Shown in pieces: positions 6,239-17,162 of a DNA stretch of 34,310 nt. This DNA is from a virus, in IMG/VR virus record IMGVR_UViG_3300027759_000248, positions 1-34,310 of that record; one strand, written 5' to 3'. Numbering within the stretch: the stretch's first letter is position 1; each line of letters begins with the position of its first letter. The notes beneath the pieces were generated by a model. That model worked only from the letters and a program-made list of their open reading frames with translations, was not told the DNA's origin and did not search any database. A program made the translations under genes and the position numbers.

Positions 6239-6889
6239 ATGAATTGTACATTTTGTAATAAACCTCTAACAGAAAAACAAATAGTTTCTTCTAAAAGAGG
6301 GGTTAGAAGAGGTTTAAATAAAACAGGTAATTGTTTTTGTAGTCAAGGATGCGGTTCTACATTTAGAATTAAGCGTCAAGCATATGACAGAAAAGAAGAT
6401 TATTTGAAAAATCCTAGAAAATGTAATTTTTGTTATACTGATATTTCTTATGAAAAATTTGTAGAAAAGAAAACAGAAAAACATAATAGAAATAAACCCT
6501 TAGAAGATATTAAAATGTTTTGTAATCAGTCATGTACTGCAAAATTTAATAATAAAGGAAAGAATCGTCATGCAACTATTATTTCTAATGAAATAAATTC
6601 TTTATACGAGTTAAGAAATAGAATGTTTTTTAAGGACTTATTAATAAGCATGAGTTTGAATAGCTGTAGTTTGTGTGGATGGGATAAAGCAAGCATAGAA
6701 ATACATCATATAAAAGGAAGAAAAATAAAAGATCCACACAATCATTCTAATCTAACTATTGTATGTCCTAATTGTCATTCTGAAATTGAAGCTAAATTAA
6801 TTCCAGAAGAAAACTTGATAAGAATGAGTGATTCTGTCCCCCAGAATTGGGGGGATTATATACCAGAAAAATATAAAAAAAGAGGATAG
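6239..6889 (+). CDS. HNH homing endonuclease with zinc ribbons
   Basis: A 216-residue protein. The C-terminal half holds an HNH nuclease: C-S-L-C-G near residue 143, I-E-I-H-H-I-K-G-R near 155, then N-L-T-I-V-C-P-N-C-H near 177, giving the His-Asn-His site with two zinc-binding CxxC pairs. The N-terminal half has further Cys pairs (C-T-F-C, C-S-Q-G-C, C-N-F-C), probably zinc ribbons for DNA binding. It starts 2 bases after the gene 46 stop with no promoter or Shine-Dalgarno seen. The position between two phage core genes is typical for a free-standing homing endonuclease; its target is not known. Confidence 0.88.
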   Translation: MNCTFCNKPLTEKQIVSSKRGVRRGLNKTGNCFCSQGCGSTFRIKRQAYDRKEDYLKNPRKCNFCYTDISYEKFVEKKTEKHNRNKPLEDIKMFCNQSCTAKFNNKGKNRHATIISNEINSLYELRNRMFFKDLLISMSLNSCSLCGWDKASIEIHHIKGRKIKDPHNHSNLTIVCPNCHSEIEAKLIPEENLIRMSDSVPQNWGDYIPEKYKKRG

Positions 6890-8175: not shown

Positions 8176-10272
8176 ATGGTAGGCTATAGAAACGCTGTTT
8201 ATAATTATAAGACAGAGACCGTAGAATTATATACTTGGTCAGAAGATGGGGGTCGCATCGTTACTTCTTTACGGTGCCATCCCTATTTTTATTATGAAGA
8301 TAATAACGGTCATGAGACCAGTATTTTTAATACTAAATTAAAAATTAAAGAATTTAAAAATCACTTTGACAAATATAAATTTATCAAAGAAAGAGGGCTT
8401 ACTAGAATATTTGATAACCATAGTCCAGTTCAACAAGTATTAATTGATACTTATTGGAATCATAATGATACAGAAGACTTTGTTAAATTTCCATTAAAGA
8501 TATATTTCGTGGACATTGAAGCGGTTGGAAGTAATGGATTTTCTTCTCCGCATGATCCGCAAGAGGAGATTTGTGTCATAACATTATACGATTCTTTAAG
8601 GAAAAAATATATCGTTTGGGGATTACAACAATATTCTACAAATGATCCAGATGTAAATTATAAATTTTGTACATCAGAACAAGAACTTTTGTTAAGTTTT
8701 ATTGATTATTTTCAATTAGATCCTCCTGATATTTTATCTGGATGGAATTCAGACCGTTATGATATTCCTTATATCATAAATCGCATTGTAAAAGTTCTAG
8801 GAGAAGAAGATGCAGACAGATTGTCACCTCATCAGAGACGATATACTAAAATGTTTGCTGGTAAGTTTGGTAAAAAGGAAATAGTTCATAGGGTTGATGG
8901 TATTTCTTGTGTAGATTATCTTGATATTTATAAAAAGTTCTGCCCTTCTAATAGAGAAAGCTATAAATTAGATTATATAGCGCAGGTAGAATTGGATGAA
9001 ACCAAAGTTGATTATGGAAATCAAAGTCTGTATGAATTCATGATAAACGATTGGCAGACATTTGTCGATTATAACATTCAAGACGTTAAGATTCTTGTTA
9101 AACTAGAAGAGGGATTGAAGTATATAGAGCTATTAAGGATGTTATCTTATGTTGGCTGTACTACCATTGAATCTGGATTGGGAACAGTTAGTGTCGTGAC
9201 TGGGGCTGCTGCAATTGAAGCTAGAAAAAGGAAACAAAGACTGCTTACTACTGTTGTAAATGAAGATGAGTTAAAAGATTTCGAAGGTGGTCATGTATCT
9301 GTTCCATTAGTTGGGCATCACACTTCGATTGTTAGCTTCGATGCCAATTCATTGTATCCAAATACGATGATTACTTTAAATACTTCTCCAGAAACTAAAG
9401 TAGGAAGGATTGAAGAAATAGATAAGAACAGGGTTTCTATTAGGAATGTAGATGGGATTGTAGTTGATATGACTACAAAAGAATTCCATAATTTCTTAAT
9501 CAAAGAAAAGATTTCTGTTTCTAGATCCAAGGTCTTATTCAGCCAGAAAAAGAAAGGAATTCTTCCCGAATTAATGGATTCTTTTTATAAAAAACGTGTT
9601 AAAATTAGAAAAGAATTAAAGAAATTAAAAGCAGACGAAAATAATTCAGAAGATAAAAAGATCAAAAACAAAATTGATCAATTGGATACGAAACAACAAG
9701 CGATCAAAATCTTTTTGAACTCTACATATGGCGCGACTGCAAATAAATTTTGTCCCATTGGAGATATGGATATTGCAGAATCTATTACTTTAACAGGACA
9801 AGCAGTAGCAAAAGAAGCTAGAGAAATTTTTAAAAGATTTGTTACTCAAGAAATTGGGATAACCGATCCAGTAGAATTAAATAAAGGTCTTATTGCTGGA
9901 GATACAGATAGCGTAGTTTTTGATACAATAGTAGATACAAATATAGGAAAAATTAAAATTGGGGAATTGTATGAAAAGTATAACAATATACAAAAATTAA
10001 ATTCTAAATTTGGACATGAAATAATAGATGTTACGGAGGAAAATTTATACAGTTCTACATTTTGTTCTAAAACTGACAAAATCATATACGGAAAAATAAA
10101 AAATCTAATTAGACATAAGGTAACAAAGAAAAAATATCTTATTGAAGTGGGAGGAAAATCCGTAATCATGACAGAAGATCATGGATGTATGGTTATGAGA
10201 GACGGAAAATTAATTAGAGTATCACCAAAAGAAATTAAAGAAACCGATAAAATGATTATTAAAAATTCTTAG
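8176..10272 (+). CDS. 43: DNA polymerase gp43, N-terminal part fused to split intein N-half
   Basis: A 698-residue protein: 578 residues of family B polymerase followed by about 120 residues of intein. The 3'-5' exonuclease motifs are visible: D113-I-E (ExoI), Y-D196-I-P-Y-I (ExoII) and Y-N-I-Q-D303 (ExoIII). Palm motif A is D389-A-N-S-L-Y-P and motif B is K511...N515-S-T-Y518-G. Motif C is cut after G-D576-T-D578. The rest of the polymerase is encoded at 11431-12249, and the joined extein would be 850 residues (T4 gp43: 898). It must join with the C-part by protein trans-splicing, because the catalytic D-T-D and the thumb are on separate proteins. It is driven by its own sigma70-like promoter. 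Confidence 0.93.
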   Translation: MVGYRNAVYNYKTETVELYTWSEDGGRIVTSLRCHPYFYYEDNNGHETSIFNTKLKIKEFKNHFDKYKFIKERGLTRIFDNHSPVQQVLIDTYWNHNDTEDFVKFPLKIYFVDIEAVGSNGFSSPHDPQEEICVITLYDSLRKKYIVWGLQQYSTNDPDVNYKFCTSEQELLLSFIDYFQLDPPDILSGWNSDRYDIPYIINRIVKVLGEEDADRLSPHQRRYTKMFAGKFGKKEIVHRVDGISCVDYLDIYKKFCPSNRESYKLDYIAQVELDETKVDYGNQSLYEFMINDWQTFVDYNIQDVKILVKLEEGLKYIELLRMLSYVGCTTIESGLGTVSVVTGAAAIEARKRKQRLLTTVVNEDELKDFEGGHVSVPLVGHHTSIVSFDANSLYPNTMITLNTSPETKVGRIEEIDKNRVSIRNVDGIVVDMTTKEFHNFLIKEKISVSRSKVLFSQKKKGILPELMDSFYKKRVKIRKELKKLKADENNSEDKKIKNKIDQLDTKQQAIKIFLNSTYGATANKFCPIGDMDIAESITLTGQAVAKEAREIFKRFVTQEIGITDPVELNKGLIAGDTDSVVFDTIVDTNIGKIKIGELYEKYNNIQKLNSKFGHEIIDVTEENLYSSTFCSKTDKIIYGKIKNLIRHKVTKKKYLIEVGGKSVIMTEDHGCMVMRDGKLIRVSPKEIKETDKMIIKNS
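9910..10269 (+). other. Split intein, N-terminal half
   Basis: About 120 residues begin at the Ser of the D-T-D-S motif. S-V-V-F-D-T-I-V then G-K-I-K-I-G-E-L-Y fits intein block A, with Ser as the nucleophile instead of Cys; V-I-M-T-E-D-H-G near residue 92 fits block B. The frame ends at TAG without a linker or endonuclease domain. The insertion point in motif C is shared with known archaeal polymerase inteins. Confidence 0.85.
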
Positions 10273-10300
10273 CAGACACAAGATTCTGTGTCTGCTAAGA
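10267..10300. repeat. 14-bp perfect hairpin between intein-N stop and endonuclease promoter
   Basis: Arms 10267-10280 and 10287-10300 are perfect reverse complements with a 6-base loop. The TAG stop of the polymerase N-part is inside the left arm, and the right arm overlaps the first two bases of the late-type box. No U-run follows, so it is not a classical intrinsic terminator. Confidence 0.8.
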
Positions 10301-10306
10301 TAAATA
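10299..10306 (+). promoter_or_regulatory. Late-type promoter box for embedded endonuclease
   Basis: GATAAATA ends 7 bases before the ATG at 10314. The endonuclease would therefore be expressed late, independently of the polymerase. Confidence 0.5.
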
Positions 10307-10313
10307 ATCATGT

Positions 10314-11318
10314 ATGGAAAATAATAAATTAGAAGAATATGTTACATGTGAAATATGTAACATTAATAAAAAACGAATAACGACTTCACATTTAAAAACT
10401 CATAATACGACTTTTTTAGAATATAAAACTTTATATCCTAATAGTAAAACTATTACAGATGAAGTAAGAAAAACGACAGCAGTTACATTAGAAAATTTGG
10501 TTAAAAAATATGGACCAGAAGAAGGAATGATTCGGTGGGAATCTTATAAAAATAAACAAGCTTATTCTAATTCATTTGAATATAAGAATAAAACTCATGG
10601 ATGGTCTGAAAAAGAATATAAAAATTTTAATAAAAGTAGAGCTGTTACTAAGATTAATTTAGTAAAAAAACATGGGAAGGAAATCGGAACCCAAATTTGG
10701 GAAAATTATGTTAATCGACAAAAACACGCTGGATGTTCTTTGGATTATTTTAAAGAAAAATATGGAGAAATTGAAGGTAATATAAAATATAAAGAATTAA
10801 ATGAAAAGAAACGATTAACTTTGGGCAATTTTCAAATTAAATATGGTATAGAAGAAGGAGAAAAAAAATATAAAGAATATTTATATAAAGTAGCCAAAAG
10901 AGAAAGTTTTTCTGAAATGTCTCAAATTTTATTCCTTCAAATAGAAGATATGCATAGCAGCAAAATATATTACGGGATTAAAAAAACTGGAGAATTTTGT
11001 ATATATGATAAAACAAATAAAAAAGCTAGATTTTTTGATTATGTAGATACAGAAAGAAAAAAATGTATAGAATTTAATGGAAATGTATATCATGCAAATC
11101 CAAAAATGTATACCGAAAATGATAGACCAAATTTTTTCAGAAAAGATTTAACTTCTAAAGATATTTGGGAAGAAGATAATAAAAAAAATGAGTTGATAGT
11201 TTCAAGAGGTTATGATTTACTAATAGTGTGGGAAAAGAATTTTACAGAAAATCCTCAAAAGGTTATAAATGAATGTTTGTTGTTTTTATATGGAAAACCA
11301 GAATTACCAAATAGTTAA
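10314..11318 (+). CDS. Vsr-like homing endonuclease inserted in the polymerase gene
   Basis: A 334-residue free-standing protein between the two intein halves. Residues 12-30 form a C2H2-type zinc site (C12-x2-C15-x10-H26-x3-H30). Residues ~55-200 contain repeats of the form K-Y-G-x-E-E-G...W-x-x-Y, probably DNA-binding. Residues ~235-310 hold the nuclease-like core: F-F-D-Y-V, then K-C-I-E-F-N-G-N-V-Y-H, then E-E-D-N-K-K and G-Y-D-L-L-I-V-W-E. This matches the Vsr-related endonuclease family reported in fractured genes with split inteins. It probably cuts intein-free polymerase alleles and so spreads the whole insert. Its 3' end overlaps the intein C-half by 29 bases. Confidence 0.85.
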   Translation: MENNKLEEYVTCEICNINKKRITTSHLKTHNTTFLEYKTLYPNSKTITDEVRKTTAVTLENLVKKYGPEEGMIRWESYKNKQAYSNSFEYKNKTHGWSEKEYKNFNKSRAVTKINLVKKHGKEIGTQIWENYVNRQKHAGCSLDYFKEKYGEIEGNIKYKELNEKKRLTLGNFQIKYGIEEGEKKYKEYLYKVAKRESFSEMSQILFLQIEDMHSSKIYYGIKKTGEFCIYDKTNKKARFFDYVDTERKKCIEFNGNVYHANPKMYTENDRPNFFRKDLTSKDIWEEDNKKNELIVSRGYDLLIVWEKNFTENPQKVINECLLFLYGKPELPNS

Positions 11319-11430
11319 AATAGATTCAGTAAAAGAAATAGGATTTTTTGAAGACGAATATGTTTATGATATAGAAATGGATTCAAATACAGAACATACC
11401 TTTTTTGCGAATGATATATTAGTCCATAAT
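11290..11430 (+). other. Split intein, C-terminal half
   Basis: Forty-seven residues with block F (V-Y-D-I-E then H-T-F-F-A-N-D-I-L) and terminal His-Asn (block G), followed by Ser as the +1 extein nucleophile. These are the residues needed for trans-splicing. Confidence 0.88.
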
Positions 11431-12249
11431 AGTGTCTATCTATCTTTATTTCAGTTAGTTAAAGATTTTTCAATCAACGGGAAAATTACTAAAGAAGCAT
11501 ATAAAGTAGCGGAAAAATTAGAGAAATATTTAAACGAGAATATAAAGTTGTGGTCTCGTCAGACTTTAAATACCATAGATAGTAGATTTGAATTTAAGAG
11601 AGAATCCATGTGCGATTATGGAGTTTTTCTAGAAAAGAAACGCTATGTATTACATGTTTTGGATAAGGAAGGCGTTGTATGTGATGATTGGAAATACACT
11701 GGAGTAGAAGTAGTCACAACCAAAATGCCGAAAGCAGTAAAGCCTTATATTAAAAAAATTATTCAAAACTTGATTACAACAAAATCCGAAACAATTACGA
11801 ATAAGATTTTCAAGGAATCGTATGACGTATTTTTAAATATGGGTATAGATGAAATATCTCAAGTTTCAGGAATTAGAAATCTTGAAAAATATGAACAACT
11901 ATCAAACGGGTTTTCTACATACAAAGGAACCCCGTTTCACGTTAAAGCTGCATACTTCTATAATTTATTGATAGAAGAGTTTGGTATATCTAATAAGTAT
12001 GAAAAAATTATTAGTGGAGATAAGATAAAATTATTTTATGTAGAACAACCAAATAAGTATGGAATATCTGCTATAGCGTATAAGAATAGGTATCCCGAAG
12101 AATTTAAGAATATTTTTAATCCAGATATGGAAGAGATGTTTGAAAAGGATATGTATAAATGTATCGGACGTTTTTATAAAGTAATGAATTGGGTTCCGAG
12201 GAAACCAACCGATCAATTAATTTTTACTTTAGATGATATTTTATCTTGA
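11290..12249 (+). CDS. 43: Split intein C-half fused to C-terminal part of DNA polymerase gp43
   Basis: A 319-residue protein if started at ATG 11290; an in-frame ATG at 11269 is possible, but 47 residues before the splice site fits known intein C-halves better. The first 47 residues are intein, ending F-F-A-N-D-I-L-V-H-N. Splicing before Ser (11431) restores D-T-D-S-V-Y of motif C. The remaining 272 residues are polymerase palm and thumb, with F-L-E-K-K-R-Y near extein start, and end D-Q-L-I-F-T-L-D-D-I-L-S, a tail resembling clamp-binding ends. No Shine-Dalgarno or clear promoter is seen; it overlaps the end of the endonuclease gene and may depend on it for translation. Confidence 0.9.
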   Translation: MENQNYQIVKIDSVKEIGFFEDEYVYDIEMDSNTEHTFFANDILVHNSVYLSLFQLVKDFSINGKITKEAYKVAEKLEKYLNENIKLWSRQTLNTIDSRFEFKRESMCDYGVFLEKKRYVLHVLDKEGVVCDDWKYTGVEVVTTKMPKAVKPYIKKIIQNLITTKSETITNKIFKESYDVFLNMGIDEISQVSGIRNLEKYEQLSNGFSTYKGTPFHVKAAYFYNLLIEEFGISNKYEKIISGDKIKLFYVEQPNKYGISAIAYKNRYPEEFKNIFNPDMEEMFEKDMYKCIGRFYKVMNWVPRKPTDQLIFTLDDILS

Positions 12250-12652: not shown

Positions 12653-12686
12653 AAAACCCTCCTCGATTTCTCGAGGAGGGTTTTTT
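12653..12686 (+). terminator. Intrinsic terminator
   Basis: The stem C-C-C-T-C-C-T-C-G-A (12657-12666) pairs with 12671-12680 around a 4-base loop, with six T after it and A-rich sequence before it. It closes the 12285 gene and isolates it from uvsX. Confidence 0.93.
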
Positions 12687-14061: not shown

Positions 14062-14092
14062 AAAAAAGGCCCCCGAAAGGGGGCCTTTTTTT
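14062..14092. terminator. Bidirectional intrinsic terminator
   Basis: The G-G-C-C-C-C-C stem (14068-14074) pairs with 14079-14085 around a GAAA tetraloop, with six A before it and seven T after. It serves the uvsX unit on the plus strand and the 14837 gene on the minus strand; the minus gene's stop codon overlaps the T-run. Confidence 0.95.
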
Positions 14093-17125: not shown

Positions 17126-17162
17126 AAAAAAAGCCTCAAGTATAGAAAACTTGAGGCTTTTT
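17126..17162 (+). terminator. Intrinsic terminator after gene 32
   Basis: The stem G-C-C-T-C-A-A-G-T pairs with A-C-T-T-G-A-G-G-C around a 7-base loop, flanked by an A-run (17126-17132) and a T-run (17158-17162). It could act in both directions. Confidence 0.92.

What the first reader, a model, noticed from the sequence alone, without database searches (positions are those of the whole stretch)
8176..12249. DNA polymerase fractured by a split intein with a homing endonuclease gene between the halves
Polymerase motif C is cut between D-T-D and S. The upstream frame ends with a 120-residue intein N-half (Ser nucleophile, T-E-D-H block B), the downstream frame starts with a 47-residue C-half ending V-H-N before Ser, and a separate Vsr-like endonuclease lies between. 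This is the 'fractured gene' arrangement described for phage split inteins. Having the replicative polymerase depend on trans-splicing, with a Ser1 intein, is worth testing, also as a fast trans-splicing tool.
Basis: partly seen in the sequence, partly recalled or inferred. Interest (0 to 1): 0.8.

Follow-up and report, generated by a model that had tools for sequence, protein, structure and literature searches.

The report
Phage DNA polymerase split by intein
A virus of bacteria makes its main DNA-copying enzyme as two pieces that should glue themselves together, with a gene-jumping enzyme gene lodged between them; this arrangement is already known from Aeromonas and Campylobacter phages, but the relatives gathered here show the gene being invaded, split and stitched back together again.

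Summary
A T4-like family B polymerase is cut in motif C (GDTD|S). The upstream ORF ends in a 120-residue Ser1 N-intein. A free-standing endonuclease gene (10314-11318) follows. The downstream ORF starts with a 54-residue C-intein (47 from an internal ATG) ending HN before Ser+1. It is a new, divergent member of a known kind. Both halves match PDB 9HTH, the split Aes123 PolB1 intein of Aeromonas phages. The same gene order is annotated in Aes123 and Tenacibaculum phage PTm1. New here is the comparative picture. The window's nearest polymerase relatives (70-76% identical) have a precise empty site. Across 87 non-redundant intein loci the same intein occurs as split+endonuclease (47), split with a decaying endonuclease (7), split with no endonuclease of this family detected (17) and contiguous mini-intein (16), often between close relatives. 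Catalytic residues are invariant. One lineage indicates that a split intein re-fused into a contiguous one after losing the endonuclease. Splicing and cleavage by the window's own proteins are inferred, not shown.

The parts
8176..9909 (+). N-extein: family B DNA polymerase exonuclease domain and palm/fingers up to motif C GDTD (578 aa)
   Evidence: PHROG 262 1.2e-137, Pfam DNA_pol_B and DNA_pol_B_exo1; contiguous homologues L012, L013, L016, L110, L111 continue straight into the C-extein
9898..9912 (+). Splice junction GGA GAT ACA GAT | AGC (G-D-T-D | Ser1 of the intein) inside motif C
   Evidence: sequence; the same DTD|S site in most intein loci
9910..10269 (+). N-intein, 120 aa, Ser1, block X His69, block B T88-x-D90-H91; stop codon 10270-10272
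   Evidence: 9HTH hit 2.9e-16; catalytic residues invariant in 87 of 87 loci
10267..10300 (.). Perfect 14-bp inverted repeat spanning the N-half stop, at the 5' end of the endonuclease cassette; no T tail on the + strand
   Evidence: fold -22.8 kcal/mol, z -6.0 to -8.7; similar hairpins at the same place in L015 and L018; role unknown
10314..11318 (+). Free-standing Vsr/EDxHD-like homing endonuclease gene, 334 aa: N-terminal CxxC...H..H zinc-finger-like motif, helical repeats, C-terminal nuclease domain with D242, E253, H260, W306; N257 where most relatives have D
   Evidence: PHROG 22677 1.5e-63; annotated 'putative VSR endonuclease' in Aes phages; alignments; model pLDDT 90.5 with Vsr and I-Bth0305I among the best nuclease fold matches, E 0.4-0.7
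11258..11262 (+). Probable Shine-Dalgarno AAAGG of the C-half, inside the 3' end of the endonuclease ORF
   Evidence: sequence; inference
11269..11430 (+). C-intein, 54 aa (47 from ATG 11290), ending ILVHN
   Evidence: 9HTH hit 3.6e-6, PolB16 intein 8CPN 1.5e-5; alignment with 12 relatives
11431..12246 (+). C-extein: Ser+1 and the rest of the polymerase (272 aa); stop to 12249
   Evidence: PHROG 1918 2.4e-43 and 262 1.5e-42; 72-75% identity to the C part of the contiguous homologues

Best explanation
The locus is a T4-like replicative polymerase gene fractured by a naturally split class-1 intein (Ser1 / Ser+1) of the Aes123 PolB1 type at motif C, with a free-standing Vsr-like homing endonuclease gene between the halves. 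The two precursor proteins are translated separately. IntN and IntC associate, the intein excises itself through Ser1 (ester formation), Ser+1 (transesterification) and Asn cyclisation, and ligates ...GDTD-SVYLS... into one polymerase. The endonuclease is expected to cut the empty motif-C allele of co-infecting phages so that repair copies the element. The splicing block keeps the polymerase working and so protects the insertion. Shown here: anatomy, homology, invariant catalytic residues, exact empty sites in close relatives, and the scattered, exchangeable distribution. Inferred: splicing activity and cleavage by the window's own proteins.
For: Both halves hit the Aes123 PolB1 split intein 9HTH. 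A contiguous relative (L028, intein 61.5% identical to the window's) is modelled at pLDDT 94.7 with 9HTH as best PDB fold match, E 3e-15, TM 0.87. Block X His, TxxH and C-terminal HN are invariant in 87 of 87 loci and +1 is Ser 81 / Thr 6. Intein dN/dS is 0.02-0.48 in the pairs where it could be computed. The same gene order is present in isolates: Aes123, PTm1, phiKp_21, VPALA, CP21. Purified Aes123, CP21 and LCGC14 inteins splice in trans in published work (PMC11923092, PMC12707363). Precise empty sites occur in L012, L013, L016, L110, L111, the nearest polymerases. Mobility: exteins 91% but inteins 56.5% identical between L015/L027 and L033; exteins 90% and inteins 99.4% between L015 and L027. 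Window extein, intein and endonuclease have different nearest relatives.
Against: No splicing or cleavage was measured. The endonuclease has Asn257 where 40 of 47 relatives have Asp (5 have Asn), so its activity is uncertain. No co-conversion tract is visible around the site, so the homing event is not dated or traced to a donor. The fold match of the endonuclease to known structures is weak (best nuclease E 0.4).
Confidence: 0.93

Rival explanations
1. The two halves work as a non-covalent two-subunit polymerase and the intein tails are spliceless relics.
For: Phages do use split polymerase subunits: gp43A/gp43B in Aes123 is a further split with no intein at that cut.
Against: All splicing residues are invariant in 87 loci and the intein is under purifying selection. 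The cut lies in the catalytic motif C hairpin, where two bulky tails would sit in the active site. Purified homologues splice (PMC12707363).
Confidence: 0.04
2. The insertion is an RNA-level element (group I or II intron) and the ORF ends are fortuitous.
For: Phage homing endonucleases are often intron-borne.
Against: No Rfam match anywhere in the window. The inserted ends encode complete intein blocks that match solved inteins, and contiguous in-frame versions exist.
Confidence: 0.01
3. Assembly or sequencing artefact.
For: The window is an uncultured 34-kb record.
Against: The same order occurs in dozens of independent contigs and several isolate genomes.
Confidence: 0.01
4. Trans-splicing works, but this particular endonuclease is dead (N257) and the element is in the decay phase.
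For: Asn257 replaces a usually conserved Asp in EFxGDxxHxNP. Decayed or deleted endonucleases are common among relatives.
Against: The ORF is full length. The other motif residues (D242, E253, H260, P263, W306) are intact and 4 other intact-looking members also carry Asn. The window-L015 endonuclease comparison gives dN/dS 0.41, not 1.
Confidence: 0.3

Closest known systems
Aes123 PolB1 split intein (Aeromonas phages Aes123, Aes508, AS-gz and others; PDB 9HTH; engineered as CL and CLm)
   Same: Family B polymerase, DTD|S site, Ser1/Ser+1, IntN 120 aa, block X His, Vsr-type endonuclease gene between the halves, C-half start overlapping the endonuclease end
   Different: 32% identical in IntN and 29% in the endonuclease. 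Aes123 gp43 is additionally split upstream into gp43A and gp43B, whereas here the N part is one piece. The window intein contains four non-catalytic cysteines.
[quoted passage not shown]
   Same: Natural split PolB inteins with Ser1/Ser+1 and the conserved extra histidine; activity shown in vitro
   Different: Different phages; the window locus and its relatives were not in that study
Fractured genes with split inteins (Dassa et al. 2009, cited in PMC10448857; text not held)
   Same: Host gene broken by split intein halves with a free-standing endonuclease gene between them
   Different: Definition taken from own knowledge and the title; the paper could not be read. Here the same intein is also found contiguous, and split with the endonuclease decayed or undetected
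EDxHD / Vsr-like homing endonucleases (I-Bth0305I, PDB 3R3P)
   Same: C-terminal domain of matching predicted fold (3R3P TMt 0.58, Vsr 1CW0 prob 0.92); invariant D, E, H
   Different: No detectable sequence match to 3R3P; N-terminal helical repeats and, in some members, a Ros/MucR-type zinc finger
Archaeal PolB motif-C inteins
   Same: Region of the same polymerase family; contiguous inteins in archaeal PolB MAG contigs found by the IntC profile
   Different: Intein and endonuclease region in one ORF rather than split; their exact insertion site was not compared here

Membership tests
Ser1 split PolB inteins (Aes123 PolB1 type) | Inserted in PolB motif C at DTD|S | tested here: met
Ser1 split PolB inteins (Aes123 PolB1 type) | Ser1, block B TxxH, C-terminal His-Asn, Ser/Thr+1 | tested here: met
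Ser1 split PolB inteins (Aes123 PolB1 type) | Extra (block X / NX) histidine specific to cysteine-independent inteins (PMC10189870, PMC13014065) | tested here: met
   His69 aligns with Aes123 H68 region MKHTVKK / IRHKVTKK; 87 of 87 loci
Ser1 split PolB inteins (Aes123 PolB1 type) | Split at the usual endonuclease position (IntN ~120, IntC ~40-50) | tested here: met
   120 and 54 (or 47) aa
Ser1 split PolB inteins (Aes123 PolB1 type) | No cysteine anywhere ('cysteine-less' in the strict sense) | tested here: not met
   Cys in IntN (52, 93) and IntC (4, 5); CP21, LCGC14 and GOM-OPS-1 also carry one each (PMC12707363), so this is not required for the kind
Ser1 split PolB inteins (Aes123 PolB1 type) | Protein trans-splicing activity | not testable with these tools
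   needs expression
Fractured gene arrangement | Free-standing endonuclease ORF between two ORFs that each carry an intein half and an extein | tested here: met
Fractured gene arrangement | Uninterrupted alleles exist in relatives | tested here: met
   L012, L013, L016, L110, L111
EDxHD / Vsr-like homing endonucleases | Conserved acidic and His active-site residues | tested here: met
   D242 47/47, E253 47/47, H260 46/47; residue 257 is Asn in the window
EDxHD / Vsr-like homing endonucleases | Vsr-like nuclease fold | tested here: inconclusive
   Vsr 1CW0 and I-Bth0305I 3R3P among the top matches but E 0.4-0.7
EDxHD / Vsr-like homing endonucleases | Site-specific DNA cleavage of the empty allele | not testable with these tools
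   needs biochemistry
Group I/II intron | Catalytic intron RNA | tested here: not met
   no Rfam match at gathering threshold

The most novel reading that the evidence does not exclude
In phage PolB the split and contiguous states of one and the same intein interconvert repeatedly. A free-standing endonuclease cassette splits a mini-intein on arrival, and its deletion leaves either a splice-competent split pair or, by in-frame fusion, a contiguous mini-intein again. So 'naturally split' is a phase of the homing cycle rather than a one-way fate. Best single case: L022 is contiguous and nested among the split+endonuclease L017, L018 and L020, and keeps an in-frame ATGAAT at the position of the relatives' C-half start codon.
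Probability: 0.6. Interest if true: 0.6.

Novelty: new member of a known kind. Interest (0 to 1): 0.42.

Why it matters
The window adds a divergent split intein to a small set that is valued for thiol-free protein ligation. More importantly, its relatives form a natural series (empty, split with endonuclease, split with endonuclease decaying, contiguous) at one site of an essential phage gene. That series makes two questions directly testable: where natural split inteins come from, and whether they can revert. Current texts state that natural split inteins derive from contiguous ones (PMC12707363, PMC7765530); here the state changes often, and in at least one lineage most likely in the opposite direction.

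Tried and rejected
Scan of viral contigs with the endonuclease alone found no relatives. PDB sequence searches with the endonuclease, single or as profile, gave nothing convincing. A co-conversion tract around the insertion was looked for by sliding identity against empty-site and occupied relatives and not seen. An intron reading was rejected (no Rfam hit). A T4-type late promoter next to the hairpin (GATAAATA at 10299-10306) was considered; it is a 7-of-8 match in an AT-rich window and exact TATAAATA occurs elsewhere, so it is not claimed. The hairpin was checked as a repeat element: no second copy in the window. Dassa 2009 and the I-Bth0305I paper were not held. The window intein could not be modelled as one chain (two genes), so the contiguous relative L028 was modelled instead.

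Full report
OBSERVATION. ORFs at 8176-10272, 10314-11318 and 11269-12249 are real and in the order described. The first encodes the exonuclease domain and the palm/fingers of a family B polymerase up to ...LIAGDTD, then 120 residues beginning SVVFDTIVD. The third begins with 54 residues ending ...FFANDILVHN, then SVYLS... and the rest of the polymerase. PHROG 262 (phage DNA polymerase) matches on both sides of the cut (1e-137, 1e-42), and the middle ORF matches PHROG 22677 at 1.5e-63. ATG 11269 has a better upstream AAAGG and gives 54 residues, with the C-half start buried 50 nt inside the endonuclease ORF. The window is a 34,310-bp virus record. Its neighbours (SbcC/SbcD-like gp46/47, UvsX, helicase, tail genes) are those of a T4-like phage.

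WHAT IT IS. IntN and IntC each hit the crystal structure of the fused Aes123 PolB1 split intein, 9HTH (2.9e-16 and 3.6e-6). They carry Ser1, the extra histidine of cysteine-independent inteins (IRHKVTKK aligned to MKHTVKK), block B TEDH, and HN before Ser+1. Across 87 non-redundant loci the extra His, TxxH and HN are invariant and +1 is Ser (81) or Thr (6). dN/dS of the intein is 0.02-0.48 in the pairs where dS could be computed. A contiguous relative, L028 (intein 61.5% identical to the window's), is predicted with pLDDT 94.7, and its best fold match in the whole PDB is 9HTH (E 3e-15, TM 0.87). Published work shows trans-splicing by purified Aes123, CP21 and LCGC14 members and an engineered version with a 16-s half-life (PMC11923092, PMC12707363, PMC13014065). 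The window's pair is therefore very likely functional, but that is inference.

THE ENDONUCLEASE. Relatives are annotated 'VSR endonuclease' in Aes and PTm phages. In 47 copies D242, E253 and P263 are invariant and I252, G256, H260 and W306 nearly so. The AlphaFold model (pLDDT 90.5, pTM 0.50) is an N-terminal zinc-finger-like part, helical repeats and a C-terminal nuclease domain. Foldseek ranks Vsr (1CW0, 1VSR) and I-Bth0305I (3R3P) among the best matches, but with E 0.4-0.7, so the family assignment is probable rather than proven. The window has Asn257 where 40 of 47 have Asp and 5 have Asn, which leaves its activity open.

RELATIVES AND THE EMPTY SITE. brought in phage records and IMG/VR contigs. 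The window's nearest polymerases (L012, L013, L016, L110, L111; 70-76% identical to L012, L013 and L016) are uninterrupted, and the two halves join exactly at GAY|(TCN/AGY). In an extein tree of 133 rows the window sits inside this empty group with support 97-100, and 'empty' needs 12 changes on the tree (at least 11 forced by starred branches). Occupancy is thus gained and lost repeatedly.

MOBILITY. L015 and L027 versus L033: exteins 91%, inteins 56.5% identical, meaning a different intein allele in nearly the same polymerase. L015-L027: exteins 90%, inteins 99.4%. L093-L094: 94% and 100%. Window-L028: 38.8% and 61.5%. The window's endonuclease groups with L062 and L095 (98), its intein with L015/L027/L033 (85, open), its exteins with empty polymerases. 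The three modules appear to have partly separate histories.

THE HOMING CYCLE IN SNAPSHOTS. After removing duplicates, 47 loci are split with the endonuclease, 7 split with an endonuclease fragment, 17 split with none of this family detected, and 16 contiguous in one ORF. Some of the 17 have another kind of gene between the halves (for example L053) or no recognisable ORF. Close pairs show the steps. L069 and L070 (split+endonuclease) and L073 (contiguous) have 84-91% identical flanks and differ by a clean ~1.17-kb block, with identical sequence on both sides of the break. L086 versus L090: the endonuclease is deleted but its last ~23 nt remain, giving a split pair without it. L061 to L068 lost ~800 nt of the endonuclease 5' part. 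L015 to L027 is a deletion from inside the 5' hairpin into the endonuclease. In the intein tree the 16 contiguous copies need 16 changes, at least 7 forced by starred branches. For direction, L022 (contiguous) is nested with L020, L018 and L017 (all split, with endonucleases that are sister to one another) in the extein tree (99-100) and shares a clade with them in the intein tree (94). Its linker carries ATGAAT at the position of the C-half start codons of L018 and L020. This is best read as a split intein that re-fused after endonuclease loss. L028 has a similar in-frame ATG (MSN) near the same place, which alone could be chance. Tree counts do not by themselves give direction.

HOW IT WORKS. 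Shown: anatomy, homology, conserved chemistry, empty sites, exchange. Inferred: two precursors associate, splice and yield one polymerase; the endonuclease spreads the element into empty motif-C alleles; because motif C DNA encodes an essential, nearly invariant peptide, precise removal is hard and a target is nearly always present.

COMPARISON WITH KNOWN SYSTEMS AND NOVELTY. It meets the tested features of the Aes123-type split PolB inteins and of the fractured-gene arrangement, so the window itself is a new member of a known kind. The novel part is the mixed contiguous/split series; no paper found in the held library describes it, though Dassa 2009 could not be read.

LIMITS. The trees are quick/fasttree builds with some long branches. 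'Not detected' for the endonuclease means not detected by this profile.

Noticed in passing
window 10267-10300: Perfect 14-bp hairpin at the 5' edge of the endonuclease cassette, spanning the N-half stop codon; related hairpins (CAGA[CT]AC...GT[GA]TCTG) in L015 and weaker ones in L017 and L018; only half remains in the L027 deletion. Role unknown.
   Followed up: partly
window 6239-6889: Free-standing HNH endonuclease (Pfam HNH 3e-6) between the SbcC-like gene and a glycosyltransferase gene.
   Followed up: no
L004, L037, L098, L100, L103, L104, L107: Second insertion point two residues earlier in motif C (GD|TDS with Thr+1) used by related split inteins, including Klebsiella phage phiKp_21.
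   Followed up: partly
L006, L007 (Prevotella phages Lak-A1 and Lak-B5): Lak megaphage PolB is split by the same kind of intein with an endonuclease gene between the halves; the genomes carry no annotation in the record.
   Followed up: partly
L053 4898-5959; L010, L054, L103, L104, L108: Other material lies between the intein halves: in L053 a 353-aa ORF with repeated HGDRYNY...HG.F.Q.P motifs, unlike the usual endonuclease; in others no recognisable long ORF.
   Followed up: no
L191 2787-5292: Endonuclease gene placed upstream of, not inside, a contiguous intein.
   Followed up: no
window 12653-12684, 14062-14091, 17128-17162: Strong inverted repeats between genes that look like terminators.
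   Followed up: no
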